This document shows positions 1 to 18,400 of a stretch of DNA of 21,168 bases, in pieces. The stretch is taken from the IMG/VR virus record IMGVR_UViG_3300024264_000192, positions 1 to 21,168 of that record, one strand, 5' to 3'. Each line of letters opens with the position of its first letter. Within the stretch, counting starts at the first letter, position 1. The notes beneath the pieces are model-generated. The model saw only the letters and a list, made by a program, of their open reading frames with translations, was not told where the DNA came from and made no database searches. The translations under genes and the position numbers were made by a program. Origin of the DNA: a virus.

Positions 1-423
1 TTATCCCATAAAAAATGCTGAGGCTTTCACAATCATACGATAACCTATCCTATCCCTGCCTTTCAATCTAACATAACGTCACCTGTTGACAGAAAACTGA
101 GTGTCATCTAAGTAGTTGATAACCTAAGTGTTCAAAGACAGAGTTCAGTTGTCGATATAAGTATTCGCTGTAAGTATCCATTTCGTCGTCAAACATTAGA
201 GAATTAGAACTCTAACTTCCTCAGTCTTGGCATCAAACTAGTAGGACAATTGCAAGCGCAACACATAAATGTCTTAGAAAAGATAGATAGATTTGTTTCC
301 AATTTGCCAATTCGATAGCTATCGTTACCTTCCGTGCAAACCTCTCCAATAATGGTCAAAAGTAGAGACTGTTATCGAATTCACATTTTTCAAATATTAA
401 TTAAAATTGACGGCAAACCTAAA
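1..423. other. Gene-free left edge
   Basis: All frames are broken by frequent stops and I see no convincing gene. The stretch holds the first copy of the dispersed motif at 27-36. It also has an inverted repeat of TTAGAG (196-201) and CTCTAA (210-215) with an 8-nt loop, and a TAGATTTG box at 288-295 that fits the Bacteroidota -7 consensus TAnnTTTG but has no clear -33 partner. It may be a regulatory or junction region, or the decayed remains of a gene. Confidence 0.5.
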
Positions 424-579
424 ATGAATTTTGGGATATTCAATAGGGTCGGCGATAAAAATCGCCTAAGTAAAATAATTTTAAAAACTTTTGGGGCAGT
501 GCTATCTATAATGGTAATCGTTTATATATTATCAATTGGCTTATCACAATCATCTATTCATATAAGCAAAACTTTTTAA
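424..579 (+). CDS. Small single-pass membrane protein, hypothetical
   Basis: The 51-residue product begins MNFGIFNRVGDKNRLSKI and then has one hydrophobic stretch of about 20 residues (about 24-44, FGAVLSIMVIVYILSIGL), followed by a short polar tail. The basic N-terminus ahead of the helix suggests the tail faces outwards. I chose ATG 424; the frame stays open upstream to a GTG at 334 and an ATG at 352, but that extension has no membrane or domain signal. One copy of the dispersed motif encodes the Ser-Gln-Ser near the C-terminus. No family is recognised. The ORF is short and isolated, so it may not be a real gene. Confidence 0.35.
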   Translation: MNFGIFNRVGDKNRLSKIILKTFGAVLSIMVIVYILSIGLSQSSIHISKTF

Positions 580-656: not shown

Positions 657-1013
657 ATGAAAAATGCAAATTCAACAACAGTCACTTTTGATGCCATTCT
701 TGTAGAGCTTCACCCTTCAGGTAAGGCTATCAAATTGGCAAATTGTAAACAAGGAAAAGAACTATTGTTCAAAGAAATTTACATGCCACGCTCACAATCA
801 TCGTTAACAGTTCTTGACGCAAAGACTAAGAAAGTCAGAGTTAGAATTCCAGAATGGTTGTTTGACACCAAAATGGATACTTACACCGAAGAACAAGAGT
901 TCACAACTGATGACTCTGTCTTCGACCAATTAGGTTTCCTATCAATTTCAGATGCCAATCAACAGTTTCCTGACAAACAGGTTGACAGATTAGCTGAAGA
1001 AAGACCTGAATAG
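657..1013 (+). CDS. Hypothetical protein, 118 aa
   Basis: ATG 657 is preceded by an AT-rich leader (TATATATT) and starts MKNANSTTVTFDAILVEL. An in-frame TTG at 600 would add residues of unlikely composition, so I prefer the ATG. The product is a compact, mainly beta-like chain (residues about 8-75), followed by an acidic, polar C-terminal tail rich in Asp, Gln and Glu. No catalytic motif is visible. A motif copy at 792 is read as Ser-Gln-Ser. A hairpin follows 12 bases after the stop, which suggests a single-gene transcript. The family is not recognised; a small DNA-binding or regulatory role would be a guess. Confidence 0.6.
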   Translation: MKNANSTTVTFDAILVELHPSGKAIKLANCKQGKELLFKEIYMPRSQSSLTVLDAKTKKVRVRIPEWLFDTKMDTYTEEQEFTTDDSVFDQLGFLSISDANQQFPDKQVDRLAEERPE

Positions 1014-1066: not shown

Positions 1067-1169
1067 CGGAATCGACACGGTTGGTCGGAATCGTTGCGGC
1101 AGTACGGCAGTACGGAATCGTTGCGGCTGCACGGAATCGTTGCGGTTGTACGGAATCGTTGCGGCTGCA
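1067..1169 (+). repeat. GC-rich 19-bp tandem array
   Basis: Five units begin with CGGAATCG at 1067, 1086, 1113, 1132 and 1151. The spacings are 19, 27, 19 and 19; the 27 equals 19 plus an 8-base internal duplication (TACGGCAG). The fullest unit reads CGGAATCGTTGCGGCTGCA, and unit 4 (1132) differs from it by two C-to-T changes. The array is much richer in G and C than its surroundings. It lies between the 118-aa gene's hairpin and a dispersed-motif copy at 1182, upstream of the tRNA. It could be an iteron array, a protein-binding array or an expanded minisatellite. Open frames across it are low-complexity artefacts. Confidence 0.85.
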
Positions 1170-1270
1170 CGGGGGGAGGGTTCACAATCATATGATGCGA
1201 CTAGTAGTAATAAAAGCAGTATATATATGATTAAAATTAGACTGAGGTTTTACATGCTTTTCCCTCAAAC

Positions 1271-1343
1271 GGCGCGTTCGTCTAACGGCTAGGACAGTAG
1301 GTTTTCAACCTAAAGATGGTAAGTTCGAATCTTCCACGCGCTA
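1271..1343 (+). tRNA. tRNA-Glu, anticodon UUC
   Basis: A complete 73-nt cloverleaf is visible. The acceptor GGCGCGT (1271-1277) pairs with ACGCGCT (1336-1342), with one G-T wobble at the tip. The D stem is GTC/GAC, the anticodon loop TTTTCAA carries anticodon TTC at 1304-1306, there is a 5-nt variable region, and the T loop is TTCGAAT (1324-1330). The discriminator base is A1343 and no CCA is encoded. Two stem pairs are imperfect: G1297 against A1313 in the anticodon stem and T1320 against C1334 in the T stem. The anticodon fits a genome rich in GAA codons. It is the only tRNA I can find here. Confidence 0.9.
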
Positions 1344-1358
1344 CTAAATTATATACAT

Positions 1359-1562
1359 ATGCAACATTACACTACAGCTGTCACAATCATACGTGACTTA
1401 GAAAACGATCAAGCAGATATCATTATGCTGATAGACAAGCTTCACAATCAGCACCAGAAAAAAACTGATGAACTAAACAACATCAATGAAAAACTTGACT
1501 TATGGTACAGTGTCAAGAAAAATATGACTGTACAAATTAATAATCTTAAAAATAAAAAGTAA
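1359..1562 (+). CDS. Small coiled-coil protein, 67 aa
   Basis: The product is a short, charged, largely helical protein. The central region (about 15-50) has a heptad-like spacing of Leu and Ile (ADIIMLIDKLHNQ through INEKLDLW), which suggests a coiled coil. ATG 1359 lies 15 bases after the tRNA 3' end. The stop TAA overlaps the next ATG by one base (1562), so the two are translationally coupled. It carries two motif copies 61 bases apart (1381 and 1442) in two different frames, which is unusual for so small a gene. No family is recognised. Confidence 0.6.
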   Translation: MQHYTTAVTIIRDLENDQADIIMLIDKLHNQHQKKTDELNNINEKLDLWYSVKKNMTVQINNLKNKK

Positions 1563-2177: not shown

Positions 2178-2546
2178 ATGAAACAAATCAAAGATTTTAC
2201 TAAAAAACGTGTAACCGACTTGAAAAAAAGTATTGTCGGTACACCAAGCGCTGCGTATCTAGATAAATTTATGCAAGCTAACCACGGTAGCAATGATGTG
2301 CTACTTGTACAAATGGCTAAACAGTATGGTTACGAATTAGCCCTTGAAGATGTCAATCAAGAAATAGATAAAATTCTAATTGACAAACAGCGTAACCTCT
2401 TCAGTTATGAAACAAAGCAACCTAAGCTAAGTACAGACACAATTGAAGATGTATTCACAATCATCAGTAAGAATCCAAAAATTCTAACTAATAAAGAATG
2501 TGCAATACTAATGTATAATACAATAAGAAATAAGTTTAACAATTAA
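2178..2546 (+). CDS. Hypothetical protein, 122 aa
   Basis: A mostly helical protein with a basic N-terminus (MKQIKDFTKKRVTDLKKS) and a central acidic helix (about 50-70). It has no membrane segment and no recognisable enzyme motif. A motif copy at 2455 is read as Thr-Ile-Ile. It starts one base after the upstream stop and is followed 12 bases later by the peptidase gene, so it is probably co-transcribed with both. The function is unknown. Confidence 0.65.
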   Translation: MKQIKDFTKKRVTDLKKSIVGTPSAAYLDKFMQANHGSNDVLLVQMAKQYGYELALEDVNQEIDKILIDKQRNLFSYETKQPKLSTDTIEDVFTIISKNPKILTNKECAILMYNTIRNKFNN

Positions 2547-2557
2547 ATTCAATCCAC

Positions 2558-3658
2558 ATGAAAAAAAACAATTTTCTTGCATCAATTATGAAGGTACAGT
2601 CAGCCTCATACAAAACACACAGAATGGCTAAATTTATAACCAAGACACTACAAAAAGATGGTCTAGGTTACACTAAGGACAAATATGGTAACATCTATGT
2701 GACTAAGGGTGATGCAGAACTATACCCTACAATGGTATGCCATATTGATACAGTACATAGTATCAACGACAACGTACGAATAGTACGTACAGGTGATAAA
2801 ATGTTTGCAATAGACTCAAGTAATTGCCATCGAATTGGTATCGGAGGCGACGACAAAGTTGGTATCTATATTACACTATGCTGTCTACGTAAGTTTGACA
2901 ACTTCAAAGCAGTATTCTTTCTAGATGAAGAGGTAGGCTGTGTTGGTTCAGGACAAGCAGACTTCAGTTTCTTTGACGACAGTACACTAGTTTTAGAATG
3001 TGACAGGCGTGGTTATGGTGACTTTGTTACTAACATATCAGGAACAAAACTCAGTGATGACACACTAATTGATGATATACAACACATACTTGACGAATTT
3101 AAATTTGTTACTTGTAATGGAGGTATTACAGATGTTGGTGAAATTGCAGAAAATACTGATGTACAAGTTGCTAATATGTCTTGTGGTTACTATGAACCAC
3201 ACAGTGACAATGAATATATCGTTATATCAGAGGTAGAAAAAGTAAAACGCATGTGTATGAAAATACTAGCTAGTACTCAGCTCAAAAAATATACAATGCC
3301 AAAAGACTCACGTGTCACATATTACGATTATGGATACGGTGATGGTTGGTATGGACACAATTACTATGGTACTAAACCTAATGACAACAACGGTCAAGGT
3401 ACAGCATACTATGACAATATCTATCACGATGATGATGCAGAATATGTATCAGTAAATCAAAAATGTAATGAATGTAATCATGCACAAATGCTTTATGATG
3501 AATATGAAGATGCATTTTGGTGTCAAAACTGTGGACATTACATATCAGCATACGAACTTGATGTTCTTACTGAAATACATGATGATGTACGTGATGAAAT
3601 AGAAGAAAAACTTGGGTATGACCCATTATTTACTAACACTGAAAATTCACAATCATGA
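2558..3658 (+). CDS. M20/M28-like zinc metallopeptidase with C-terminal zinc ribbon
   Basis: The full metal-ligand set of the M20-type co-catalytic zinc peptidases is visible: H62 and D64 in CHIDTVH, D98/D99 in GGDDKVG, the catalytic base and ligand E124/E125 in DEEVG, D149 in ECDRRG and H215 in YEPHSDNEY. GGITDVGE (188-195) also matches the family. The usual dimerisation domain seems reduced, so the catalytic part ends near residue 240. A low-complexity Tyr/Asp/Gly linker (about 255-300) then leads to a zinc ribbon with C303, C306, C322 and C325. An aminopeptidase or dipeptidase activity is likely; the substrate is unknown. The stop overlaps the next start (ATGA), inside a motif copy. Eight of ten Arg codons are CGN/CGT-type, unlike the downstream operon. 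Confidence 0.85.
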   Translation: MKKNNFLASIMKVQSASYKTHRMAKFITKTLQKDGLGYTKDKYGNIYVTKGDAELYPTMVCHIDTVHSINDNVRIVRTGDKMFAIDSSNCHRIGIGGDDKVGIYITLCCLRKFDNFKAVFFLDEEVGCVGSGQADFSFFDDSTLVLECDRRGYGDFVTNISGTKLSDDTLIDDIQHILDEFKFVTCNGGITDVGEIAENTDVQVANMSCGYYEPHSDNEYIVISEVEKVKRMCMKILASTQLKKYTMPKDSRVTYYDYGYGDGWYGHNYYGTKPNDNNGQGTAYYDNIYHDDDAEYVSVNQKCNECNHAQMLYDEYEDAFWCQNCGHYISAYELDVLTEIHDDVRDEIEEKLGYDPLFTNTENSQS

Positions 3659-5430
3659 TAGACTTAATTATACAAGACGCAATACGTAATGTTATAAGTG
3701 ACGAATATATTAAAACATTCAAGCTACCAGACGATAAAAGTAACCATTTATATCATAGTAAAATTATAGGAGTATGTGAAACTATAGCTGCAGTTATACA
3801 TAACAACAGGCAGATATCAATTAATACTATAGCATATCGTGTACAAGAATGCGAGTGCACATGGTCTGTTGCTTTTAAAACAGCATTAAAAATAGCTAGT
3901 AAACTCAGAACATCAGAGTATTTCAAATATCTAACAGAATATGAAACTTTTGATGACGATAATAATAAATTGTATTCTATAGATTTTAAATTAGAAGACT
4001 ATCAAAAAACAATAGACTTCGGTAGTTACAAAATGAGAATATATGACATAGTAAAATTGCAGTATAGCATGTCAACACCAAAACGTAGCAGAAGATATTC
4101 TATGCTATCTGAAACACTAAAACGTAGGATACAACGTATCATTGACAGAATGCATAGCGATAGAGATGACATGTTTAAACATTATCACGACAAAGTTAGA
4201 ATACAAAAACTAGATAGAACTTTAAATTATATTGATAATCAGTATTACAGTATAGATAAAGTGAGAAATTTTACAATCAATCTAAAAGGTGAAATGACTT
4301 GCTTACCAAAAGGTAAGCCTTGTAAAACAGTAGTAACAGAAGAACAAGGTACTGTATGGTCTAAAAACTATAGACAAACAATAAAATATGGAAAAGGTGT
4401 TAGAGCAATATTCAACCAAGAAGGCATACCACCAACAAGTATGACTGATATACAAGATATATCACAATCACTTAAAGCTGCATATACATTTGTTGGTGAT
4501 ATACAAGTTGTAGAAGGTGAAGACATAAGATTGTACTATCACTACGACCAATACTCAAATGACAATACAGAGTCATTAGGTAACTCTTGTATGCGACACG
4601 ATAGCTGTCAAGAATTCTTTGACATATACGTTGATAATCCTGATAAAGTAAAAATGGCAATAGCTAAAACACCTGATGGTATAATTGGTAGAGCATTGTT
4701 ATGGACAACTGACTGCGGTACAAAAGTTATGGACAGAATTTACGGTAATGAAATAACTATAAATGGTATGAAAGCTTGGGCACACGCAAATAGTTATATA
4801 CACAAAAAAGTACAAAGTTATTCAAACGATACTGATTTTGTAACTACAGTAGGAGAAATTATTACAGGTGAATATAAAATAACACTTGAACGTAATAATG
4901 ACTACATGCCGTATATGGATACATTCAAATACTCTGATGATCAATACGCAAAACAATTAGTAATAACAAATGACAGTTGTTACGATAACTATACGTTTGA
5001 CTCAACCGATGGAGGTGAGGCAGGAGGAACGTTATGTGTAAATGGTGAAAGATATAACGATGATGATGTATGTTACATAGAATACGGGTCAGTAGAAGAA
5101 GGTTATTATCACAATGATGATACATTTTACTGCGATTGGAGTGACCAATCATATCATGAAGACGATATGGTAAGAACAAATTCAGGTGACACAGTATTTA
5201 AAGAACACAATGACTTAGTATGGATGGAACATTATGACGCATACGAACACTGCGATGATGTTGTTTTCTCTGACCAAATTAATTCGTATATATTAATTGA
5301 AGACTCAGTAGAATGTATTATCAAAGGTGCTATACTAAAGTCACAATCATGTGAAATTACACTTAATGAACTATCATATACTGTACATGAAGATGTAACA
5401 ACTAACGAACTTGAAGAATTCTTAAGCTAA
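3655..5430 (+). CDS. Large phage protein with GNSCM motif, function unknown
   Basis: A 591-residue soluble protein. The N-terminal half (1-200) is helical and basic. The centre has a conserved-looking block LGNSCMRHDSC (about 306-316), followed by EFFDIYVDNPDKV and, further on, GRALLWTT and VMDRIYG. I recall similar blocks in other large phage proteins without known function. The C-terminal region (about 440-560) is very acidic, with repeated Tyr/Asp/Cys units such as GERYNDDDVCYIEYG and DDTFYCDWSDQSYHEDD, resembling degenerate treble-clef or LIM-like repeats whose cysteines are mostly lost. It overlaps the peptidase gene by four bases, so the two may act together. Motif copies lie at 4462 and 5341, both read as Ser-Gln-Ser. 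The sequence does not support any specific activity. Confidence 0.8.
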   Translation: MIDLIIQDAIRNVISDEYIKTFKLPDDKSNHLYHSKIIGVCETIAAVIHNNRQISINTIAYRVQECECTWSVAFKTALKIASKLRTSEYFKYLTEYETFDDDNNKLYSIDFKLEDYQKTIDFGSYKMRIYDIVKLQYSMSTPKRSRRYSMLSETLKRRIQRIIDRMHSDRDDMFKHYHDKVRIQKLDRTLNYIDNQYYSIDKVRNFTINLKGEMTCLPKGKPCKTVVTEEQGTVWSKNYRQTIKYGKGVRAIFNQEGIPPTSMTDIQDISQSLKAAYTFVGDIQVVEGEDIRLYYHYDQYSNDNTESLGNSCMRHDSCQEFFDIYVDNPDKVKMAIAKTPDGIIGRALLWTTDCGTKVMDRIYGNEITINGMKAWAHANSYIHKKVQSYSNDTDFVTTVGEIITGEYKITLERNNDYMPYMDTFKYSDDQYAKQLVITNDSCYDNYTFDSTDGGEAGGTLCVNGERYNDDDVCYIEYGSVEEGYYHNDDTFYCDWSDQSYHEDDMVRTNSGDTVFKEHNDLVWMEHYDAYEHCDDVVFSDQINSYILIEDSVECIIKGAILKSQSCEITLNELSYTVHEDVTTNELEEFLS

Positions 5431-5845: not shown

Positions 5846-5903
5846 ACTATAATACATACATACATTAGCACAAACATACTTCATAAGTTCACAATCACCG
5901 AGG

Positions 5904-5960
5904 ATGCGACTGAGATGCGACTGAAAACAGGATGCGACTGAAATGCGACTGAAATGCGAC
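5904..5960 (+). repeat. 11-bp iteron-like array (ATGCGACTGAA)
   Basis: ATGCGAC starts at 5904, 5915, 5932, 5943 and 5954. The spacings are 11, 17, 11 and 11, so four of five units sit about one helical turn from a neighbour on the same face. The 17-base step contains a 6-base insert (AACAGG). The unit is ATGCGACTGAA; the last copy has ATGCGACCGAA. It begins six bases after a dispersed-motif copy. Confidence 0.85.
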
Positions 5961-6023
5961 CGAAAATCCAATATGTAGTGCAGTTTTGTGCTTAAAACAC
6001 TAGTTTATCAACAAAAAAAAGAC

Positions 6024-6031
6024 TATATTTG
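6024..6031 (+). promoter_or_regulatory. Promoter -7 box TATATTTG for the replication operon
   Basis: TATATTTG matches the Bacteroidota -7 consensus TAnnTTTG and is followed by GTTAAT, as at 6714. The ATG at 6053 lies 21 bases downstream. A -33 box is not clear: TTTA at 6004-6007 is too close and TTTG at 5985-5988 too far, so activation by a protein bound to the array is possible. Confidence 0.6.
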
Positions 6032-6052
6032 TTAATATAAATCCAATTTAAT

Positions 6053-6304
6053 ATGAAAACAAAAGACTATTTACACTCAGAATTACTAAGCAACAAGAAA
6101 AACGATCTAGTGTTTGAAAAAACATACTCATTGATTGATAAGCTTGCAAAAAAACAAACAGAAATGATGTGTGCTGCATTTAATTTAGATGATCAGAACC
6201 ACATAAAAGAGCTGGAGAGAATGAACGCGATACATTATTCAGATGACATTATCGAACTAGTAAACTACACAATTGCAAACTTTAATAAAACTAAAAAATT
6301 ATAA
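6053..6304 (+). CDS. Hypothetical protein, 83 aa, first gene of the replication operon
   Basis: A small, charged, all-helical protein (MKTKDYLHSELLSNKK...) without membrane segments or metal-binding motifs. It follows the promoter at 6024 with a leader of about 20 bases, and the next gene begins after two bases. Leading the early replication operon, it could be a regulator or a host-takeover protein, but nothing in the sequence shows which. Confidence 0.65.
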   Translation: MKTKDYLHSELLSNKKNDLVFEKTYSLIDKLAKKQTEMMCAAFNLDDQNHIKELERMNAIHYSDDIIELVNYTIANFNKTKKL

Positions 6305-7151: not shown

Positions 7152-7870
7152 TTAAAAAACTACAAGACGATAAGCACTACTATGGTGAGTTTGGTCAAAA
7201 ATACTTATCAAACTCAGACATAGATGCTCTGATCAACAATCCGTATAGTTTTCACCAACCAAAATCACAATCATTGCCGTTCCTCTACGGGTCGGCTTTT
7301 CATGAAATGGTTATGTTTGGTAAAAGCGACAACATGGAATCTATTGAGTCATCAACTCGTACAACTAAAATCTACAAACAAGCAATTTTAGATAGTGGTA
7401 AAGAAATAATTTTACTACAAAAAGAGGCTGATGAAATACTAAACATGGTTGATGTGTTTAAGTCAAATGACAACATCAAAGAGGTGTTAAATACCAAGAA
7501 CATAAAGTTTGAAGTTCCGTCTGTTGGATTTATGACAGACAACGACATTCCGTGGAAGGGTAAAGCTGATATCATTACAGATGATTTTGTTTACGACATC
7601 AAGACATGTTCTAAACTAAAAAGTTTTCGTAACAGCTCTAGATCCTATAATTACGATAGTCAAGCGTTTATATACTCAAAATTGTTCCAGAAGCCTATGA
7701 AGTTTTTAGTAATAGAAAAAGGTACTGGTCTAATTGGAATATTTGAAACATCAGACGAAGCGTATGATAATGGATATTACAAGGTTGAAGCGGCTGAAAC
7801 TCAGTTTTTAAAATATTTTGTAAACAAAGAGGCAGACCTTAAAAACTTTACTAAGTATGGGGAAATATAA
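7139..7870 (+). CDS. RecE-like PD-(D/E)XK exonuclease
   Basis: A 243-residue nuclease of the YqaJ/RecE/Cas4-like fold that degrades double-stranded DNA ends to leave single strands for annealing. Seen in order: an N-terminal YLSNSDIDALINNP (22-35), typical of phage and RecE-type members; H55 in GSAFHEM; D144 in WKGKADII; D153-I-K155 in VYDIKTC, the (D/E)XK core; and Q175 in YDSQAFIY, the QxxxY motif. All expected catalytic residues are present. It starts inside the end of the candidate annealase gene. A motif copy (7265) encodes Ser-Gln-Ser at 43-45, in a region that is not a catalytic block. Confidence in the fold is high; polarity and product are inferred. Confidence 0.85.
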   Translation: MEKVIKKLQDDKHYYGEFGQKYLSNSDIDALINNPYSFHQPKSQSLPFLYGSAFHEMVMFGKSDNMESIESSTRTTKIYKQAILDSGKEIILLQKEADEILNMVDVFKSNDNIKEVLNTKNIKFEVPSVGFMTDNDIPWKGKADIITDDFVYDIKTCSKLKSFRNSSRSYNYDSQAFIYSKLFQKPMKFLVIEKGTGLIGIFETSDEAYDNGYYKVEAAETQFLKYFVNKEADLKNFTKYGEI

Positions 7871-8317: not shown

Positions 8318-8908
8318 ATGAAAACAAAAACAGACAAATATCAAGTGCTTGATATAATCTCAGAGGTTATAGAAAAAAAACATAAAGTAGACAATCAATA
8401 TATATTTCAAGACACAAGAAAAAGAGAAGTGTGTGATTTGAGAAAAGTGTTTTTTTACTTAGCAACTAGATTCACTAGGCTTCCTTTACAAGATATAGGA
8501 AACTACTCTAAGCACAGAGGTCGTGGCAACGCTCACAATCATGCGACTATCATATACAGCTCAAAATTAGTTAAAGATTGGATTTCAATCGACAATGAAT
8601 ATAAAGAGTATATAGGTGAAATAGAAAACGAAGTAAAATACTTTGTAGACTATGAGCAATACAGATATGATGAATCAAACAAGTATAAAAAAAGAATTGC
8701 AAAGAAAATTTACCATGAAGAAGATATTGTGTTTTTAACTAAATACAATGAAATTACAGAAAAACTATACGAAAACAGAGAGTTTATTGATAACTTGGCG
8801 GATACTATCAATGAGCTTATAACAAATAAAGAACAAAACGATGAAAGGGTATATCAAGCTTCACAGGAGGATTCTCGATTGGGAATGGTACAAGGACTCC
8901 AATACTAA
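8318..8908 (+). CDS. Stand-alone DnaA domain IV-like DNA-binding protein
   Basis: Residues about 30-105 match the C-terminal helix-turn-helix domain of DnaA: KREVCDLRKVFFYLATRF corresponds to the helix that starts the domain, PLQDIGNYSKHRGRG to the turn, and NAHNHATIIYSSKLV to the signature that reads DnaA boxes (normally DHTTV). The AAA+ ATPase part of DnaA is absent. The remaining C-terminal 90 residues are helical and charged. It probably binds a specific DNA site at the phage origin or competes with host DnaA; the iteron array and the near-DnaA box at 6005 are candidate targets. The last 68 bases overlap the next gene in another frame. A motif copy (8533) encodes the His-Asn-His of the signature itself. 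Confidence 0.75.
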   Translation: MKTKTDKYQVLDIISEVIEKKHKVDNQYIFQDTRKREVCDLRKVFFYLATRFTRLPLQDIGNYSKHRGRGNAHNHATIIYSSKLVKDWISIDNEYKEYIGEIENEVKYFVDYEQYRYDESNKYKKRIAKKIYHEEDIVFLTKYNEITEKLYENREFIDNLADTINELITNKEQNDERVYQASQEDSRLGMVQGLQY

Positions 8909-9587
8909 AATTATATTCATACACTTATTATTAAACGCCTGCTACGACGATTGTAGATTTATGGGGCGGGCTGTGGCTAAAGGGGAATACATTACGTCTC
9001 TTAATAGAATTTCTGTAGATCTAAATATACCAATTAGAAAGGTAAGAACTGCTATTAAAAGACTAAAACAAACAGGAGAAATAGACACGCAAACGACAAA
9101 TAAATACACTAAGGTAACTATCTGTAACTATGATAGTTATCAAGTTGAGGAGCGTAAAACTAGAAAGAAAACGACAAGCAAGCGACAAGCAAGTGTCAAG
9201 CAAGTGACAGAGATAAATAAGAATATAATAAAACAAGAAAATAAAAATAACATATTTTTAACCGATTGTCTTAATTCTGCAACTTGGGCTGAAGTTGTTT
9301 GTATGCAAAACTCAATTAGCAAAGAATCTTTAGATAAAGCATTGGACACATTTCACAATCATCTAATCATGACTGACGAAATTAAAAACTCAATAAAAGA
9401 CTATAAATCTCATTTTGTTAATTGGCTTAAATACAACAAAGTTGATGCTATAAAGAACTCTGGTAGCTACAAATGGAAATGGAAAGGTCAAAGCACCAAG
9501 AGTGGAACTAAAACTGAATTAGAGAAGGATAGAAAATTTTACGATCAACCAGGATTTGACTTTAAAATAATACAAAATGGACATTAA
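8841..9587 (+). CDS. Winged-helix replication organiser (phage O/DnaD-like)
   Basis: The N-terminus MKGYIKLHRRILDWEWYKD, followed by IFIHLLLNACYDD, is the characteristic opening of phage replisome-organiser proteins. A winged helix-turn-helix then reads GEYITSLNRISVDLNIP and VRTAIKRLKQTGEI up to about residue 110 (NYDSYQ). A basic Lys/Arg/Ser-rich linker (115-145) separates it from a C-terminal helical domain (about 150-205) that probably contacts the helicase. The protein would bind origin DNA and load the primase-helicase encoded next, with which it overlaps by 11 bases. The start at 8841 lies 68 bases inside the DnaA-like gene but is supported by the conserved N-terminus. A motif copy at 9353 is read as His-Asn-His. 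Confidence 0.8.
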   Translation: MKGYIKLHRRILDWEWYKDSNTKIIFIHLLLNACYDDCRFMGRAVAKGEYITSLNRISVDLNIPIRKVRTAIKRLKQTGEIDTQTTNKYTKVTICNYDSYQVEERKTRKKTTSKRQASVKQVTEINKNIIKQENKNNIFLTDCLNSATWAEVVCMQNSISKESLDKALDTFHNHLIMTDEIKNSIKDYKSHFVNWLKYNKVDAIKNSGSYKWKWKGQSTKSGTKTELEKDRKFYDQPGFDFKIIQNGH

Positions 9588-11334
9588 CGGATTTAAAATA
9601 AAAGACTACAACGTTTACAAACTAGATACAAAATCTAAAAAATCAACATGTCCTGTGTGTTCTTCAAGTAGAAAGAAAAAGACTCAAAAATGTTTGATGT
9701 TAGATTGGGATAGAGGTCTTGGAACTTGTCAGCATTGTGGAGAGGTTTTACAGCTACATACTTACGAAAAAGAGGCTGAATACACTTACGAGGCACCTGT
9801 GCTACGCAAAGTAAATAAGCCTGGAGATAATATGATTGAATGGTTTAAAAGTAGAGGTATTACAAGCCAAACATTAGATAAGTTAGATGTGACCGCTGGA
9901 CTAGAATATATGCCTCAAGTTAGCAAAGAGGTGAATGTAATCATGTTTAAGTATAACTATAAGGGAAAGTTGGTAAATGTAAAATACAGAGATGCACAGA
10001 AAAACTTTAAGTTGTATAAAGGAGCAAAGAAGATTTGCTATAACATGGATTCCATTATAGGTAAAGACGAATGTGTTATTGTTGAAGGTGAAATAGATTG
10101 CCTTTCGTTTGTAGAAGCTGGTGTTGAAAATGTTGTGAGTGTTCCAAATGGGTTTACAGCAACAGGTCAAATAAACCTAGACTACCTCAACGATTTGTAT
10201 TATCACTTTGAAGACAAGAAAAAAATATACGTTTGCGTTGATGCTGATGAGGCTGGTGAGAACGGAAAGAAAGAGTTGATAAGAAGGTTTGGTTCAGAAA
10301 AGGTTTATTTATGCGATTTAAAGGATTGTAAAGATGCAAATGAATACTTAATCAAGTATGGTGCTGAAAGTTTAAGAGATGTAATAAAAACAGCAATACC
10401 CTGCCCAATAGAAAATGTATTAAGGGTTTCTGATATGGAAGCTGACTTAGATGACTTTTATAAAGGTGGTGTTAAGAATGGTTTTAAGATTGGTTTAGAT
10501 GGATTTGATTCAATATTTTCTACATACACAAAGCAATTTGTTGTAGTGACTGGATTTCCAAGTAGTGGTAAGTCGGACTTCGTGGACCAAATGACAATAG
10601 GATATAATATGATGTATGGATGGAAGACGGCTTATGCTTCGACAGAAAACTATCCACAATACTTACATGTTGACAAGCTGATAAGAAAACTGTATGGTAA
10701 TACTCCAGAGTACAAAGACACAAAGTCACAATCATGGAGAAGATGCGTCAACCACATTAATAAAAACTTTTGCTTTATTAATTATGAAGACGGATTTGAT
10801 TTAGATAAAGTATTAAAGAAAGGTGAAGAGCTTGTAAGAAGAGTTGGTATCAGATGCTTGGTTATTGACCCTTACAACAAGATAAGAGACAAATCTAATA
10901 TGAATTTAAGTATAACTGATTATACAAATGCTTACTTAAATAAAATAGATAATTTTTGTAAAAAAAACGATGTTGTATGTATTCTTGTAGCTCACCCAAC
11001 AAAACCTCAAAACGATAAAGGTAAATTGATTGAGCCAACATTCTACGATGTAAAAGGTGGTGGTGAGTTCTACGACATGAGTCCTCATGGGATATTAGTA
11101 CATCGTGATTTTGAGGCGGGTACAGTAAAGATTAAGGTGTTAAAAGTAAAGTTTGCGAATCTTGGAGAGAATCAAGCTCACGTAGATTACTGTTGGAATG
11201 TAAACAACGGAAGATATACAGATTTAAGGGATGGTTCACCTGTATGGGACAATACAAATTGGTTGACAGAAAAAGGCAATCCTTATGAATTAACTAAAAG
11301 TTTAGATGTTGAATTTAAAAAACTAGAATTATGA
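9577..11334 (+). CDS. Bifunctional TOPRIM primase-DnaB-type helicase (T7 gp4/Twinkle-like)
   Basis: Zinc ribbon C25-C28 and C51-C54 at the N-terminus; TOPRIM domain about 160-265 with E170 in VEGEIDCLSF and D222/D224 in VDADEAGENG; RecA-like helicase about 295-585 with Walker A GFPSSGKS (326-333), Walker B CLVIDP (D431), the H3-type VAHPTKP (471-477) and an arginine-finger region near GILVHRD. At 585 residues it is full length for the T7 gp4/Twinkle class. It would unwind the fork and make RNA primers. It is the most confidently assigned gene here and anchors the replication operon. It overlaps the next gene by four bases. A motif copy (10726) encodes Ser-Gln-Ser at 384-386. Confidence 0.95.
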   Translation: MDINGFKIKDYNVYKLDTKSKKSTCPVCSSSRKKKTQKCLMLDWDRGLGTCQHCGEVLQLHTYEKEAEYTYEAPVLRKVNKPGDNMIEWFKSRGITSQTLDKLDVTAGLEYMPQVSKEVNVIMFKYNYKGKLVNVKYRDAQKNFKLYKGAKKICYNMDSIIGKDECVIVEGEIDCLSFVEAGVENVVSVPNGFTATGQINLDYLNDLYYHFEDKKKIYVCVDADEAGENGKKELIRRFGSEKVYLCDLKDCKDANEYLIKYGAESLRDVIKTAIPCPIENVLRVSDMEADLDDFYKGGVKNGFKIGLDGFDSIFSTYTKQFVVVTGFPSSGKSDFVDQMTIGYNMMYGWKTAYASTENYPQYLHVDKLIRKLYGNTPEYKDTKSQSWRRCVNHINKNFCFINYEDGFDLDKVLKKGEELVRRVGIRCLVIDPYNKIRDKSNMNLSITDYTNAYLNKIDNFCKKNDVVCILVAHPTKPQNDKGKLIEPTFYDVKGGGEFYDMSPHGILVHRDFEAGTVKIKVLKVKFANLGENQAHVDYCWNVNNGRYTDLRDGSPVWDNTNWLTEKGNPYELTKSLDVEFKKLEL

Positions 11335-11678
11335 AAACAATAGTATTAGCAATTATGGTTACGGCAACAATTTACCATGCCGACCCAAAACAATGTAATG
11401 CAGATTACTTAACGACTGCATCACTTAAAAAAATCAATTCACAATCACCTGGATCACATAGATGGATAGCTGTCAGTAGAGATTTAGAGGAATACGGTTT
11501 CGTATTTGGAGCAAAAGTATGTGTGGAAAATGCTGGAGACATGAATGGAATCTGGACGGTGGAAGATAGAATGAATAAGAGGTGGAAAAAAAGAATTGAT
11601 TTCCTTGTTGATTACGACTTAAAAGGTGGTAAATGGGAGGATGTAAAAATATCTTTAATAGAAGATGAAGGACATTAG
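11331..11678 (+). CDS. 3D-domain double-psi beta-barrel cell-wall protein
   Basis: ATIYHADPKQCN (12-23), then TTAS, followed by WIAVSRDLEEYGFVFGAKVCV (45-65) and GIWTVEDRMNKRWKKRIDFLVD (73-94), match the 3D domain found in MltA and Sps/YocH-type wall proteins. The three aspartates that name the family fit D79, D90 and D94. The domain starts almost at the N-terminus, leaving only a short hydrophobic stretch (MKTIVLAIMV), so export would rely on a very short signal or a holin. A role in peptidoglycan cleavage at lysis or entry is likely. It overlaps the helicase gene by four bases (ATGA), an unusual place for a lysis-type gene. A motif copy lies at 11439. Confidence 0.75.
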   Translation: MKTIVLAIMVTATIYHADPKQCNADYLTTASLKKINSQSPGSHRWIAVSRDLEEYGFVFGAKVCVENAGDMNGIWTVEDRMNKRWKKRIDFLVDYDLKGGKWEDVKISLIEDEGH

Positions 11679-13139: not shown

Positions 13140-14236
13140 GCAAAAAAAGAGTTAGACTAAACAAGGAAGAGGCAATAGCTTTAGGTTTAGAAGTAAAGGA
13201 AACCGAACAAGGAAGAAATACTTTTAGAGCATACATAGACATTGAGTCTCAACAAAAACTTAATCAAGTAAGACACCAAGGTGTTGCTGATTACTGCAAG
13301 GAAAGAGGTATTGATTTCAATAGTGTTAGTCAGTATTGGGACAAAACAAAAGAGTATTCAGTACAAGTAAGACCAACAATAGTTTCATACAACGATATAT
13401 CTAGACAGATAATAGATGAAATGAAACTATACTCTCCTAGTTATCCTAAAATTAAAAGATCAAAAATAAAAGAACCTCATCTACTAGTTATAGATCCAGC
13501 TGACGTTCATATAGGAAAACTTTCTACTTCTTTTGAAACAGGAGAAGATTATGATTCAGAAATAGCAATACAAAGAGTTAGGGATGGCGTTCAAGGAATA
13601 CTAGATAAATCGTCTGGATTTCAAATAGACAAATTCTTATTAATAATAGGTAACGATATTCTGCACATAGATACTCCAAAAAGACAAACAACTTCGGGAA
13701 CACCACAAGACACTGATGGTATGTGGTATGAAAGTTTTTTAAAAGCAAAAGCTATCTATGTAGAGGTAATAGAAAAACTTATAGCAATCGCTGATGTTCA
13801 TGTAACATATAACCCAAGTAATCACGATTACACTAATGGATTCTTTTTAGCTGATGTCATCACTACCTGGTTTAGAAATTGTAAGCATGTAACATTTGAT
13901 TCAAGCATAAGCCATAGAAAATACTTTCAGTATGGTAAAAATTTAATAGGAACAACACATGGTGATGGAGCTAAAAATAATGATCTTCCTTTACTTATGG
14001 CTGTAGAAGCTAAAGATAGATGGTCACAATCACGTCACCGATACGTTTACACACATCATGTACATCATAAAAATGCAAAAGACTATGCAGGTGTAACTGT
14101 AGAAAGTTTAAGAAGTCCTTCTGGAACAGATAGTTGGCATCATAGAAACGGATATCAACACGCTCCAAAAGCAATAGAAGGATTTTTACATCACCCAGAG
14201 TTTGGGCAGATAGCAAGATTAACACATATATTTTAA
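13136..14236 (+). CDS. Calcineurin-like metallophosphoesterase
   Basis: The dinuclear metal site of this superfamily is complete: D123 and H125 in DPADVHIGK, D174 in IGNDILH, N229/H230 in PSNHDY, H275 in TTHGDGAK and the histidines of YTHHVHHK (305-312). The first 100 residues form a basic, helical extension (MSKKRVRLNKEEAIALGL), perhaps a DNA-binding head. Phage members of this type are often labelled DNA repair exonuclease-like phosphoesterases; a nucleic-acid substrate fits the context but is inferred. A motif copy (14024) encodes Ser-Gln-Ser between the last two metal motifs. Confidence 0.85.
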   Translation: MSKKRVRLNKEEAIALGLEVKETEQGRNTFRAYIDIESQQKLNQVRHQGVADYCKERGIDFNSVSQYWDKTKEYSVQVRPTIVSYNDISRQIIDEMKLYSPSYPKIKRSKIKEPHLLVIDPADVHIGKLSTSFETGEDYDSEIAIQRVRDGVQGILDKSSGFQIDKFLLIIGNDILHIDTPKRQTTSGTPQDTDGMWYESFLKAKAIYVEVIEKLIAIADVHVTYNPSNHDYTNGFFLADVITTWFRNCKHVTFDSSISHRKYFQYGKNLIGTTHGDGAKNNDLPLLMAVEAKDRWSQSRHRYVYTHHVHHKNAKDYAGVTVESLRSPSGTDSWHHRNGYQHAPKAIEGFLHHPEFGQIARLTHIF

Positions 14237-14523: not shown

Positions 14524-14976
14524 ATGGACTATAAGAAAAAACTTTTTGTAAATAAGGAATTAAGCGACGAAGATCTTGATTATGTAAAAAAAGTTTTAAA
14601 GAATGTGGATTTAATTGAACACCTGAAAGATTCTTTTGTATATGTTACTGTAGATGAAGAAGATGGAGTTCAAGTAGTAAGTGCTAAAAATGAATATGTT
14701 TATTTAGTCTCTAAAGAGTATTATATTGATAACAAGATGTCAATGGAATATCTAAAAAGAAGATATGAAATAAACAATAAGCTGAAAGAAACTCTTTATT
14801 GGATGGGATTAAATAATTTAAAAAAGTTTGTTCCTGTTATTTCAGATAATGGCATAGAAAAAAAATACTCAGAAAAAGCTGTTTATGCAGAAAACGCTCC
14901 AGAAGCAGTTGGTATAATGGATAATATGGATGAACATGATTACATGTATTTAGAGGACGTAGATGAAGAGATATAA
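14524..14976 (+). CDS. Hypothetical acidic protein, 150 aa
   Basis: I prefer ATG 14524 (MDYKKKLFVNKELSDED) over the in-frame TTG at 14518, which lies inside the -7 box. The chain is helical in its first half (LDYVKKVLKNVDLIEHLKD), has a beta-like stretch (FVYVTVDEEDGVQVVS), more helices, and a very acidic end (DEHDYMYLEDVDEEI). It overlaps the downstream nuclease gene by 14 bases. No family is recognised; the acidic tail could regulate or mimic a nucleic-acid partner, but that is speculation. Confidence 0.65.
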   Translation: MDYKKKLFVNKELSDEDLDYVKKVLKNVDLIEHLKDSFVYVTVDEEDGVQVVSAKNEYVYLVSKEYYIDNKMSMEYLKRRYEINNKLKETLYWMGLNNLKKFVPVISDNGIEKKYSEKAVYAENAPEAVGIMDNMDEHDYMYLEDVDEEI

Positions 14977-15415
14977 AAAAAACAAACAAATAACTAGAGC
15001 AACTAAAACAGTTATTGATGGAATACAGTTTCAATCAAGACTAGAGTCTCATATGTACTTATTGTTAAAAGCAAATGAAATAAGTAACGGATACGAAACA
15101 CATCAATTCACAATCATTGACGGATTTCTGAGCGAACATTCTTCTTACGAAAAAACACCAAAAAAGAAATTTCTACACGATAGAGGTTATAAAAAAATAC
15201 TACCTATAAGATATACTCCTGACTTTGTTGATACTCAAGTACCTCCAAGATATATTATAGAGTGTAAAGGAAATCCAAATGAAAGATTTCCTATGGTTTG
15301 GAAATTGTTTAAAAGACACCTTCATATTAAAGGCTGGTCTCCAGATTTATTTGTACCCAGAAACCAGAAAGATTGTCAAGAGGTAATAAATATAATAAAA
15401 GAAAAATATTATTAA
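14963..15415 (+). CDS. PD-(D/E)XK nuclease, DUF1064-like
   Basis: A 150-residue protein with the small phage nuclease layout: FQSRLESHMYLLL with E28, RYTPDFV with D87, and IIECKG with E100 and K102, which together complete the catalytic PD-(D/E)XK site. Such proteins are often proposed as junction-resolving or Vsr-like endonucleases in phages. The basic N-terminus (MKRYKKNKQITRATK) suits DNA contact. It overlaps the previous gene by 14 bases, and its stop shares three bases with the stop of the convergent giant gene. A motif copy lies at 15108. Confidence 0.8.
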   Translation: MKRYKKNKQITRATKTVIDGIQFQSRLESHMYLLLKANEISNGYETHQFTIIDGFLSEHSSYEKTPKKKFLHDRGYKKILPIRYTPDFVDTQVPPRYIIECKGNPNERFPMVWKLFKRHLHIKGWSPDLFVPRNQKDCQEVINIIKEKYY

Positions 15416-18400
15416 TCTTTAGGTGTATTTACGTTTTTCCTTATGTTCTCAATTACATCTAAAGCGTGTTTTTTTGCAGAACGATCCATATCTTTTTGTT
15501 CTTTTTCCCACCATTCACCTATATTATTCATATCAACAGGTTGCTTTTGTTCTTTTGTCCTGTAGTCTAAATAAGCTTTAAAGAAAGCGTTATTAACTCC
15601 TTTTATTGAAGGCGAAGACCTTGTGTAATTCTCTTCTATTTGTCTTTCTAATTTATTAAGAAGATTGTTTACATCTCCTTTTGGTATAGGAAGAAGTAAG
15701 TTTGCAGTCCTAGCATATAAAAGGTAATCAATAACTTTATCAATTTTTTCTTGCATAGCAGGAGTATCTGCCGCAATGTACTCAATTATCCCTGTGCTAG
15801 AAACTCCGCTACCTGGTTTTTTAAATACGCGATCTTTGTACAAAGTATAAGCTTTTGAAAACTTATCCAACTGTTCAAGACCAACACTATACATACCTAA
15901 ATTTTCTTTTAAAAGTAATACTATTTCATCAGTGCTTGTCCCCATCTTATCTAAGTCTGAAGATATGTACTCTGGTATAACCTCTTCTCCTAATAGCTCA
16001 TTCATTACAGAAAATCCTAAATCATATAATGGATCTGGAACAGCATAAGGCAAGGTTGTTTTAAACATATCTGTTGCCATTTGCAATAAAACACTATAGT
16101 TTGGAGATATCTTATATTTATTCTCATACTCCATAGTTGTTTTATACAGCTCTAAAAGAGTGTAGTCTATACCAGTTGCTGTTTCATTAAAAGAAGCTTT
16201 AAAGCCTTCTAAGGTCTCTCTCTGACCTCTAGGTATTTTAGATAATTGCTCCTTGTAATCAGGATCTTCTATTGACAAGAAAGCATCACCAATAAGTTTT
16301 GTCATTCCACCGTATCTATCAATATCATCCTCATCTGCTCCAAACTGCATCATTGCAGCTCCAACAAAACCTATAGTTGTAACTCTTCCTGTACTTAATT
16401 TTATTCCGTTAAACACAGCAACTTCATTCAATATACCTCTCATTCTTTTACGAGCTTCTTGCCTTTGTAGCTCTGGTACATTCTTGTCTTGAGACCTAGC
16501 GTATTGATTGGCAAAATTTGCTTTAGCATTTAACATAAATTTACCCCAAGGAAATATCATTCTTTGAGCTGCTTTTGTTCCTGTTTTAGCATTTATAGCA
16601 TAGAATTCAGCTTCAGAAGTAGGCTCTGTTTGTCTCATGGTTTCAGCAATTCTTCTATCTGCATACTCAATAGCTTCTGTGTTTGGGTTTTCGTTTTCTT
16701 TCTTCCACCACGCTGATATGTCTTTAGGAACAATAGCACCTTGATCTATTCTGTTTTGTAAGTAATGAGCTTCAAAGGCAGAATTTGCTGCAGCTCTATC
16801 CGCATTAGCTAAGAAAAACTCAAGAGAACCTTCTGAGGTTTTTGTTATCACTTCTAAAACACCGTCTATTGTATATTGAAGACCTCTTATTTCATCAGAA
16901 AAAAGGCTACTATCCATATTAAATTTACTAAGATAATAATCAAAAGGAAGCTTTGTGTTTTCTCCTATAGCAAATTCTGCTTTCAAAGCATTACGTAATC
17001 CAGTTCTTGATTGACTGTAAATATTAGAAAGCTGACCTCCTTTTACAAGGTTATTTGCCCATTGAGCATATTTAGCTGTTTTTTGACCACTTCCAACACC
17101 TGCCATAGAATACAAAAACCTTGCGTTGGCTAATTTTAAATGATTTCTAGCCTTTGCGTCATTTAGCATAGGCATAGTACCAGTAGTTGCACTATAAAAC
17201 TGAGAAGCTGGTTGATTAAATCTTGAAAGACCTATTGCAGATAAAGTAGAATAAAAAGCTTGTCCTATTTTTCCACCAGTGCTTTTTAAGTCTGGACTAC
17301 CAAAATCCATTTGTACATTTTGACCCTGAGAAATCATGTAATTAAAAATCTCCATTCTAGATCCAAAATATTTCTTTACGCTTTTATAATCTTTACCTTC
17401 CTTTTTAAATAAATCTTTAAACCCATCAGAATTCACAATCATATCTATGGTTTCAAAATCTTGACGAGAATTCATGTCAATAAAAGAACCTTGCATCTGC
17501 TGGTAAGCTCTTTCAAAATAATTACCAAAAGATAGTCTAGAATTTTCAAGTGTATCATCTTCTGTAACATCTTGAAGAACTCCTGCGAAAGTGCCAAAGT
17601 CACTTCCTTTTTTGTTTTTTAATCTAAAAGAGTCACTTGTCTCTTGTCCGCTATCTGCTGTTCTAAAACTAGGTACATAAGTTCCGTCCACAAAAAAAGT
17701 ATCTTTACCTTCATAGTCTTTTTTTCTTTGCTTGGCTTCCTGGTGAGGAAATCTTTCTGAAAGTCTATTAAGAGCATTTACTATGGGCGTTTTTGCGTTC
17801 CTAGACACATCTTTATAAGATAAAGCGCCTTGTAGTCCTAAGCCTTCTATTGTGGCTTTTAATTGTTTGTATTTTGCTTCAGTTATATTGTCGGGATCAT
17901 CTTCGTATTCTTGTTTTCTAAGGTCCAACTCTTTTAATAAGCTATTTTTTTGTCTTTGGAATTCAGTGTCTAATCCTGTAGATTGATCTATTTCACCAGA
18001 TTTTCTTCTTAAATGAGCTAAAACCTGCATCTCATAAGAAAGTTCTAAATTTCTTAAATCAGTAGAAATTTTATTTTTAGGATTAGCTTTGTTATATGCT
18101 TTAATTTCGTTTTTAAATAAAGAAACGTCTTGATTAACAAACTCTGCAGAAGTGTTCATTGCGCTTGCTACATTTCTGTTTGCAGCAGAAACTAAATCAA
18201 TAAACGGCTTTCCTTTAGAGGTGTCTCTAAAAATAGCACCCAAAAATATATCTGAAGTCATTAAGTTTTTAGGCATTACTTTCGTTCTACCCATCATCAT
18301 TTTTCTTCCAAAATTATTTACATAGGGAAATATATCTTGAATAAGGCTAAAAGGATTTATGTTTTTCTTACTAAGTAGCTTTGGGTTATCAAGAATATCT

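What the first reader, a model, noticed from the sequence alone, without database searches (positions are those of the whole stretch)
5889..6052. Candidate phage origin with 11-bp iterons and a DnaA-like box
Five ATGCGAC units are spaced mostly one helical turn apart, followed by TTATCAACA (one mismatch from the DnaA box), an AT-rich segment and a promoter, at the head of the replication operon. The same operon encodes a DnaA domain IV-like protein and a winged-helix organiser.
Basis: partly seen in the sequence, partly recalled or inferred. Interest (0 to 1): 0.68.

Follow-up and report, generated by a model that had tools for sequence, protein, structure and literature searches.

The report
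Nick-capped repeats in Bacteroidota-type phages
The repeat cluster is real and conserved in dozens of uncultured phages, but it looks like the main site of an array of one-strand DNA nicks (as known in phages T5 and tf) rather than the replication origin, which more likely lies 3.3 kb downstream inside the helicase-loader gene; nicked phage genomes have puzzled biologists for 50 years.

Summary
Observation confirmed: five ATGCGAC units (spacing 11, 17, 11, 11), TTATCAACA and a TAnnTTTG promoter lie at the head of a replication operon. In about 24 relatives the repeats persist as irregularly spaced AYGYGAC units, and every array not cut by a contig end is capped 1-13 nt upstream by TCACAATCA. 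That exact 9-mer occurs 19 times in the window, all on + (0.2 expected), and strictly on one strand in about 80 relatives, regardless of gene direction, with gaps growing with distance from a conserved non-coding element. Metagenome contigs of this clade begin exactly at TCACA|ATCA (16 verified of 79 left ends; 0.5 expected; 0 of about 120 controls), while right ends stop 2-15 nt past it: the signature of a top-strand nick. A better origin candidate is a strictly 11-bp-phased iteron array plus AT-rich stretch inside the organiser gene (9172-9260), conserved in 39 relatives. The 'DnaA box' keeps a fixed 10-nt distance to the -7 box, so it belongs to the promoter. The nicks were inferred from assembly ends, not measured; their function is unknown.

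The parts
5889..5897 (+). TCACAATCA cap of the array; inferred top-strand nick between 5893 and 5894 (TTCACA^ATCA)
   Evidence: Every non-edge array in relatives is capped by this 9-mer 1-13 nt upstream; contigs L003, L005, L011, L039, L042, L073 begin at this nucleotide
5904..5960 (+). Array A: five ATGCGAC units (5904, 5915, 5932, 5943, 5954), core AYGYGAC in relatives
6005..6013 (+).
   Evidence: 10-nt spacer to the -7 box in 22 of 23 loci
6024..6031 (+). TATATTTG, Bacteroidota-type -7 promoter box
   Evidence: spacing conserved in relatives
6053..6304 (+). First gene of the replication operon, conserved, no known family
8318..8908 (+). DnaA domain IV-like DNA-binding protein without ATPase domain; signature HNHAT instead of DHTT
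   Evidence: PF08299; fold Z 15.3 to DnaA domain IV 1j1v, rmsd 1.4 over 94 residues; alignment
8841..9587 (+). DnaD-like helicase loader / replisome organiser
   Evidence: phrog_2514 E 2e-23 and DUF7833
9172..9215 (+). Array B: four 11-bp iterons (CGACAAGCAAG x2, TGTCAAGCAAG, TGACAGAGATA) inside the organiser gene; best origin candidate
   Evidence: 88 of 95 gaps in 39 distinct loci are exactly 11 nt
9211..9260 (+). AT-rich stretch directly after array B (candidate unwinding element)
   Evidence: 82.5% AT on average in the 45 nt after the array against 65.7% for the gene
9577..11334 (+). TOPRIM primase-helicase
   Evidence: phrog_239 E 2e-81
26..60 (+). E0: conserved non-coding element TTCACAATCATWCGATANCCNAYCCTATCC holding the first site of the gradient
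27..35 (+). polar 9-mer TCACAATCA (inferred nick site), in E0
544..552 (+). polar 9-mer TCACAATCA
792..800 (+). polar 9-mer TCACAATCA
1182..1190 (+). polar 9-mer TCACAATCA, followed by one ATGCGAC
1381..1389 (+). polar 9-mer TCACAATCA
1442..1450 (+). polar 9-mer TCACAATCA
2455..2463 (+). polar 9-mer TCACAATCA
3647..3655 (+). polar 9-mer TCACAATCA
4462..4470 (+). polar 9-mer TCACAATCA
5341..5349 (+). polar 9-mer TCACAATCA
7265..7273 (+). polar 9-mer TCACAATCA; orthologous contig L064 starts at this nick
8533..8541 (+). polar 9-mer TCACAATCA followed by TGCGACT, in the DnaA-IV gene; orthologous contigs L007 and L059 start here
9353..9361 (+). polar 9-mer TCACAATCA in the organiser gene; contigs L019 and L021 start at the orthologous site
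10726..10734 (+). polar 9-mer TCACAATCA
11439..11447 (+). polar 9-mer TCACAATCA
14024..14032 (+). polar 9-mer TCACAATCA
15108..15116 (+). polar 9-mer TCACAATCA inside the FTIID codons of the DUF1064 gene; sites in the orthologous gene of G001, G004, G010, G011, G015 too
17433..17441 (+). polar 9-mer TCACAATCA, antisense to a late gene
14963..15415 (+). DUF1064 PD-(D/E)XK nuclease, weak candidate for the nickase
   Evidence: PF06356; TPDF..ECK residues invariant; conserved in the motif-bearing genomes tested; best fold match I-Bth0305I catalytic domain Z 8.3

Best explanation
The element at 5889-5963 is a nick-capped repeat array, and its cap is one of 19 copies (in this contig) of a polar 9-mer that marks site-specific single-strand interruptions in the virion DNA of this phage clade. 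Inferred mechanism: a phage-encoded or phage-directed nickase recognises TTCACA^ATCAY on one strand only and cuts after TTCACA, leaving nicks densest near one end of the early arm and sparser further on, as in phages tf and T5. The AYGYGAC repeats just 3' of the cap recruit a protein that makes this the most often nicked site, in the control region of the replication operon. Replication itself more likely starts at the 11-bp iterons and AT-rich stretch inside the organiser gene (9172-9260), bound by the DnaD-like organiser that loads the primase-helicase. Shown by computation: motif, polarity, exactness, gradient, capping, excess of contig ends, organiser-gene iterons. Inferred: that the ends are nicks, which enzyme cuts, what the nicks do, and where replication starts. 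My confidence by part: nick motif 0.8; array A as the main nick site 0.5; array B as the origin 0.5.
For: TCACAATCA: 19 on +, 0 on -, 0.19 expected. Relatives holding the helicase: hundreds on the helicase strand, none on the other; 15 long contigs all on one strand, across both transcription arms. No single-mismatch variant clearly enriched; 151 exact on + and 0 on - in 412 kb. Synonymous-codon shuffles: 7-12 coding sites observed against 0.7-1.2 expected. Gap against order Spearman 0.74-0.95 in five sequences. Left contig ends: 18 of 79 begin ATCA (0.48 expected, binomial 2e-23); 16 kept, 14 of them with an uncut homolog reading TCACA|ATCA at the break; no such start in motif-less relatives. 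Right ends stop 2, 7, 7, 8, 14 and 15 nt past the cut, as expected if end repair trims one side of a nick and fills the other. Array caps are contig ends in 6 of 33 cases, other sites in 10 of 291 (p = 0.003). Published precedent: tf TACT^RTGMC, 14 nicks in one strand, 11 in the left half (PMC3517423); Rembedalsseter WACTRTGAC and 60 relatives (PMC11780129). Array B.
Against: No reads, gels or strand-resolved coverage were available; nicks are inferred from assembly ends of partly related contigs. Six right ends are few. Contig ends could also come from double-strand cuts or a blocked site. Late-arm sites gave no contig start among the late-gene contigs, though by my estimate only one or two were expected. 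No nickase is identified. Array B is missing or degenerate in some organiser genes (L035-L037, L040, L053); in the genomes of L040 and L053 only the third array near groEL is found. Nothing shows binding to either array.
Confidence: 0.6

Rival explanations
1. Array A is the phage origin: the organiser or DnaA-IV protein binds the AYGYGAC units, melts the AT-rich DNA and loads the helicase.
For: Conserved, one array per genome in most genomes, at the head of the replication operon; 77-84% AT downstream.
Against: Spacing irregular, 5-28 nt, and units can overlap at 5 nt; a phased iteron array with its own AT-rich stretch lies in the organiser gene; the DnaA-like box is locked to the promoter.
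Confidence: 0.15
2. Nick-primed start: the nick at the array cap gives a 3' end for rightward strand-displacement synthesis, and the repeats at the 5' end of the displaced strand load the 5'-3' primase-helicase.
For: The cap is always 5' of the repeats; array caps are contig ends more often than other sites; polarity suits one rightward fork around the genome.
Against: In phikF77 nicks are sealed early and return late, and viable T5 mutants without nicks exist (PMC3517423); the densest sites lie upstream of the array.
Confidence: 0.2
3. The dispersed 9-mer is a Chi-like recombination signal (read as TGATTGTGA on the - strand) for an enzyme entering at E0 and moving right.
For: Strict polarity, exactness and a decreasing density from one point.
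Against: Does not predict contigs that begin exactly inside the motif or a fixed place beside the repeats; other flavophages lack it. Host genomes could not be tested here.
Confidence: 0.07
4. The repeats are operators of the replication-operon promoter (array A) or of stoperator type (dispersed 9-mers), silencing or timing transcription.
For: Array A lies just upstream of a conserved promoter.
Against: Dispersed sites lie in coding DNA in both sense and antisense, keep one strand where genes reverse, and tolerate no mismatch.
Confidence: 0.15

Closest known systems
Localized single-strand interruptions of Pseudomonas phage tf and the LUZ24-like/Rembedalsseter group (TACT^RTGMC / WACTRTGAC)
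   Same: Exact 9-mer, about 10-20 copies, one strand only, in and out of genes, concentrated towards one side of the genome, other single-substitution sites not nicked (PMC3517423, PMC11780129)
   Different: Other motif (TTCACA^ATCAY) and unrelated phages; one site always caps a repeat array at the replication operon; nicks not measured here
T5 / BF23 nicks (consensus R/GCGCRGG) and phiKMV-like nicks (CGACxxxxxCCTA/CTCCGG)
   Same: Site-specific nicks in one strand with uneven distribution
   Different: T5 motif is short and also occurs in the un-nicked strand (PMC3517423); unrelated sequences and hosts
Lambda-type origin inside the initiator gene (lambda O; replisome-organiser genes of lactococcal phages; from general knowledge)
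   Same: Four or so iterons at one helical turn, then AT-rich DNA, in the middle of the organiser gene (array B)
   Different: 11-bp short iterons with core CGACAARC; the same iterons recur on the other strand near groEL (array C)

Membership tests
Localized single-strand interruptions (T5/phiKMV/tf kind) | Short asymmetric motif confined to one strand of the genome | tested here: met
   19/0 in window, 158/0 in 15 long contigs
Localized single-strand interruptions (T5/phiKMV/tf kind) | Uneven distribution, denser on one side | tested here: met
   Spearman of gap against order 0.74-0.95
Localized single-strand interruptions (T5/phiKMV/tf kind) | Physical nick in virion DNA at the motif | tested here: inconclusive
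   Indirect: contig ends exactly at TCACA|ATCA with asymmetric left and right ends
Localized single-strand interruptions (T5/phiKMV/tf kind) | Nick has 3'-OH and 5'-P and is sealed by ligase | not testable with these tools
   Needs DNA
DnaA-box origin | Cluster of DnaA boxes | tested here: not met
   No TTWTNCACA near the array; one in the window, on -, at 11.5 kb
DnaA-box origin | DnaA-type DNA-binding domain present | tested here: met
   PF08299 and fold Z 15.3 to 1j1v; no ATPase domain in this 196-aa protein
Iteron origin within the initiator gene (lambda type), applied to array B | Phased direct repeats in the organiser gene followed by AT-rich DNA | tested here: met
   88 of 95 gaps are 11 nt; tail 82.5% AT
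Iteron origin within the initiator gene (lambda type), applied to array B | Binding by the organiser and replication start at the site | not testable with these tools
   Needs biochemistry or marker-frequency data
Iteron origin, applied to array A (5889-5963) | Helically phased repeats | tested here: not met
   11, 17, 11, 11 in the window but 5-28 nt across relatives
Chi-like signal | Over-represented in the host genome, leading-strand biased | not tested
Stoperators | Repressor-binding sites oriented with transcription | tested here: not met
   Strand does not change where genes reverse; the repressor-binding half was not tested

The most novel reading that the evidence does not exclude
Site-specific nicks serve replication in these phages: the conserved nick-capped repeat array at the replication operon is where an incoming or late nick is turned into a replication start, which would give the first clear function for nicked phage genomes.
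Probability: 0.2. Interest if true: 0.88.

Novelty: new variant of a known kind. Interest (0 to 1): 0.7.

Why it matters
Site-specific nicks in phage genomes have been known for about 50 years without an agreed function (PMC11780129). A large, widespread clade with a sharp motif, a regular gradient and one nick site fixed beside a repeat array at the replication operon gives that question a concrete test. It also suggests that nick motifs can be found from metagenome assemblies alone, by where contigs end. Separately, a conserved organiser-gene origin candidate is given for phages that have no cultured close relative in the collection searched.

Tried and rejected
Chi, primase sites, KOPS-like and antitermination readings of the 9-mer were considered before contig ends were examined; none predicts ends inside the motif. 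RNA pairing was dropped because wobble variants are not enriched. A terminase/cos reading of the gradient start was dropped: the gene left of it is groEL, and TerL lies mid late arm. An Rfam search found only tRNAs. Looking for a cultured relative gave none close: best helicase match in the phage collection is under 60% identity, Cellulophaga phage phi10:1 at 43.6%; MW202828.1 shares TerL (63%) but not the motif. The conserved 249-aa late protein was considered as nickase but has no nuclease match. Contig starts L072 and L040 look like hits but are coincidences.

Full report
What was checked. The window is a 21,168-base IMG/VR virus record. The downstream genes are a replication operon with a DnaA domain IV protein and a DnaD-like organiser; the DnaA domain IV assignment is strong by fold (Z 15.3, rmsd 1.4 over 94 residues to 1j1v), though its signature reads HNHAT instead of DHTT and no ATPase domain is present in the protein.

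A polar 9-mer. The array is preceded by TTCACAATCA. The core TCACAATCA occurs 19 times in the window, always on +, with 0.19 expected. Scans of IMG/VR gave about 80 loci with the same primase-helicase; in them the 9-mer lies only on the helicase strand. In 15 longer contigs it keeps one strand from end to end, including across the oppositely transcribed late arm. Consensus from 139 non-redundant sites is TTCACAATCAY with near-random flanks, apart from GCGAC following at the arrays. None of the 27 single-mismatch variants is clearly enriched. Shuffling synonymous codons removes the excess. The gaps widen with distance from a conserved non-coding element, TTCACAATCATWCGATANCCNAYCCTATCC, right of groEL.

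Contig ends reveal breaks. Of 79 true left contig ends in this clade, 18 begin with ATCA (0.48 expected). For 14 of these an uncut homolog, up to 100% identical, reads TCACA|ATCA at the very break; two (L040, L072) are coincidences and two (L011, L073) are array caps without an aligned uncut homolog. No left end of about 120 motif-less relatives starts so. Right ends do not stop at the cut but 2-15 nt beyond it (L307, L010, L055, L166, L080, L063). A nick in the + strand predicts this: on the right-hand fragment end repair trims back to the nick, on the left-hand fragment it fills in past it. Two contigs (L010; L073/L166) run from one site to another. This matches the published nicks of phage tf and its relatives, which also use a 9-mer in one strand, unevenly spread (PMC3517423; PMC11780129). 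I found no report of nicks in Bacteroidota phages in the library searched.

In about 24 distinct loci the array persists as AYGYGAC units with irregular spacing (5-28 nt). Each array not cut off by a contig end has the 9-mer 1-13 nt upstream. Its cap is a contig end in 6 of 33 cases, other sites in 10 of 291 (p = 0.003). The 'DnaA box' is TTATNAACA in relatives, with a 10-nt spacer to the -7 box in 22 of 23; it belongs to the promoter, perhaps as the site of the DnaA-IV protein. I therefore read 5889-5963 as the strongest nick site of the genome, lying in the control region of the replication operon.

A better origin candidate. Inside the organiser gene lies a second array, 9172-9215: units of CGACAAGCAAG at an 11-bp period that is out of codon frame, then AT-rich DNA to about 9260. 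In 39 distinct relatives 88 of 95 gaps are exactly 11 nt, and the following 45 nt are 82.5% AT against 65.7% for the gene. The same unit recurs three times on the other strand near groEL in all ten loci that reach it. Iterons within the initiator gene followed by AT-rich DNA is the lambda-type layout (general knowledge). Some relatives (L035-L037, L040, L053) lack array B, so the question is open.

Enzyme. The DUF1064 protein (14963-15415) has PD-(D/E)XK residues, a fold match to the I-Bth0305I catalytic domain (Z 8.3, at the level where chance matches occur), and is conserved in the motif-bearing genomes tested. It is also found in two phages without the motif. It is a lead only.

Limits. Nicking, binding and replication start were not measured. 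Contigs are not fully independent. Host genomes could not be tested.

Noticed in passing
window 1112-1172 (and degenerate copies from about 1065): 19-bp tandem repeat ACGGAATCGTTGCGGCTGC, three copies, ending just before the 9-mer at 1182 that is itself followed by ATGCGAC.
   Followed up: no
window 1271-1344: tRNA-Glu (TTC) gene; tRNAs also lie in the same early region of relatives G010, G011 and G015.
   Followed up: partly
G004 about 6981, G010 about 55938, G011 about 60791, G015 about 17891 (minus strand, oriented maps): Array C: three 11-bp iterons of the organiser-gene type about 150 bp upstream of groEL, in all ten loci that reach this region.
   Followed up: partly
L143 (MW202828.1): A related circular phage without the polar 9-mer array carries about 11 copies of the 16-bp palindrome GTGTCGTTAACGACAC.
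   Followed up: no
L124 (NZMJ01000013.1): A 64.6-kb phage contig of this clade is binned into a Maricaulis MAG; probable misbinning.
   Followed up: partly
L131 12724-13470 minus: Conserved 249-aa late protein of unknown family near groEL, with an HTH-like C-terminal stretch by eye; possible late regulator.
   Followed up: partly
window 2558-3658 and 3655-5430: Two long conserved early genes found only in motif-bearing genomes of those compared; the first resembles M42 peptidases weakly.
   Followed up: no
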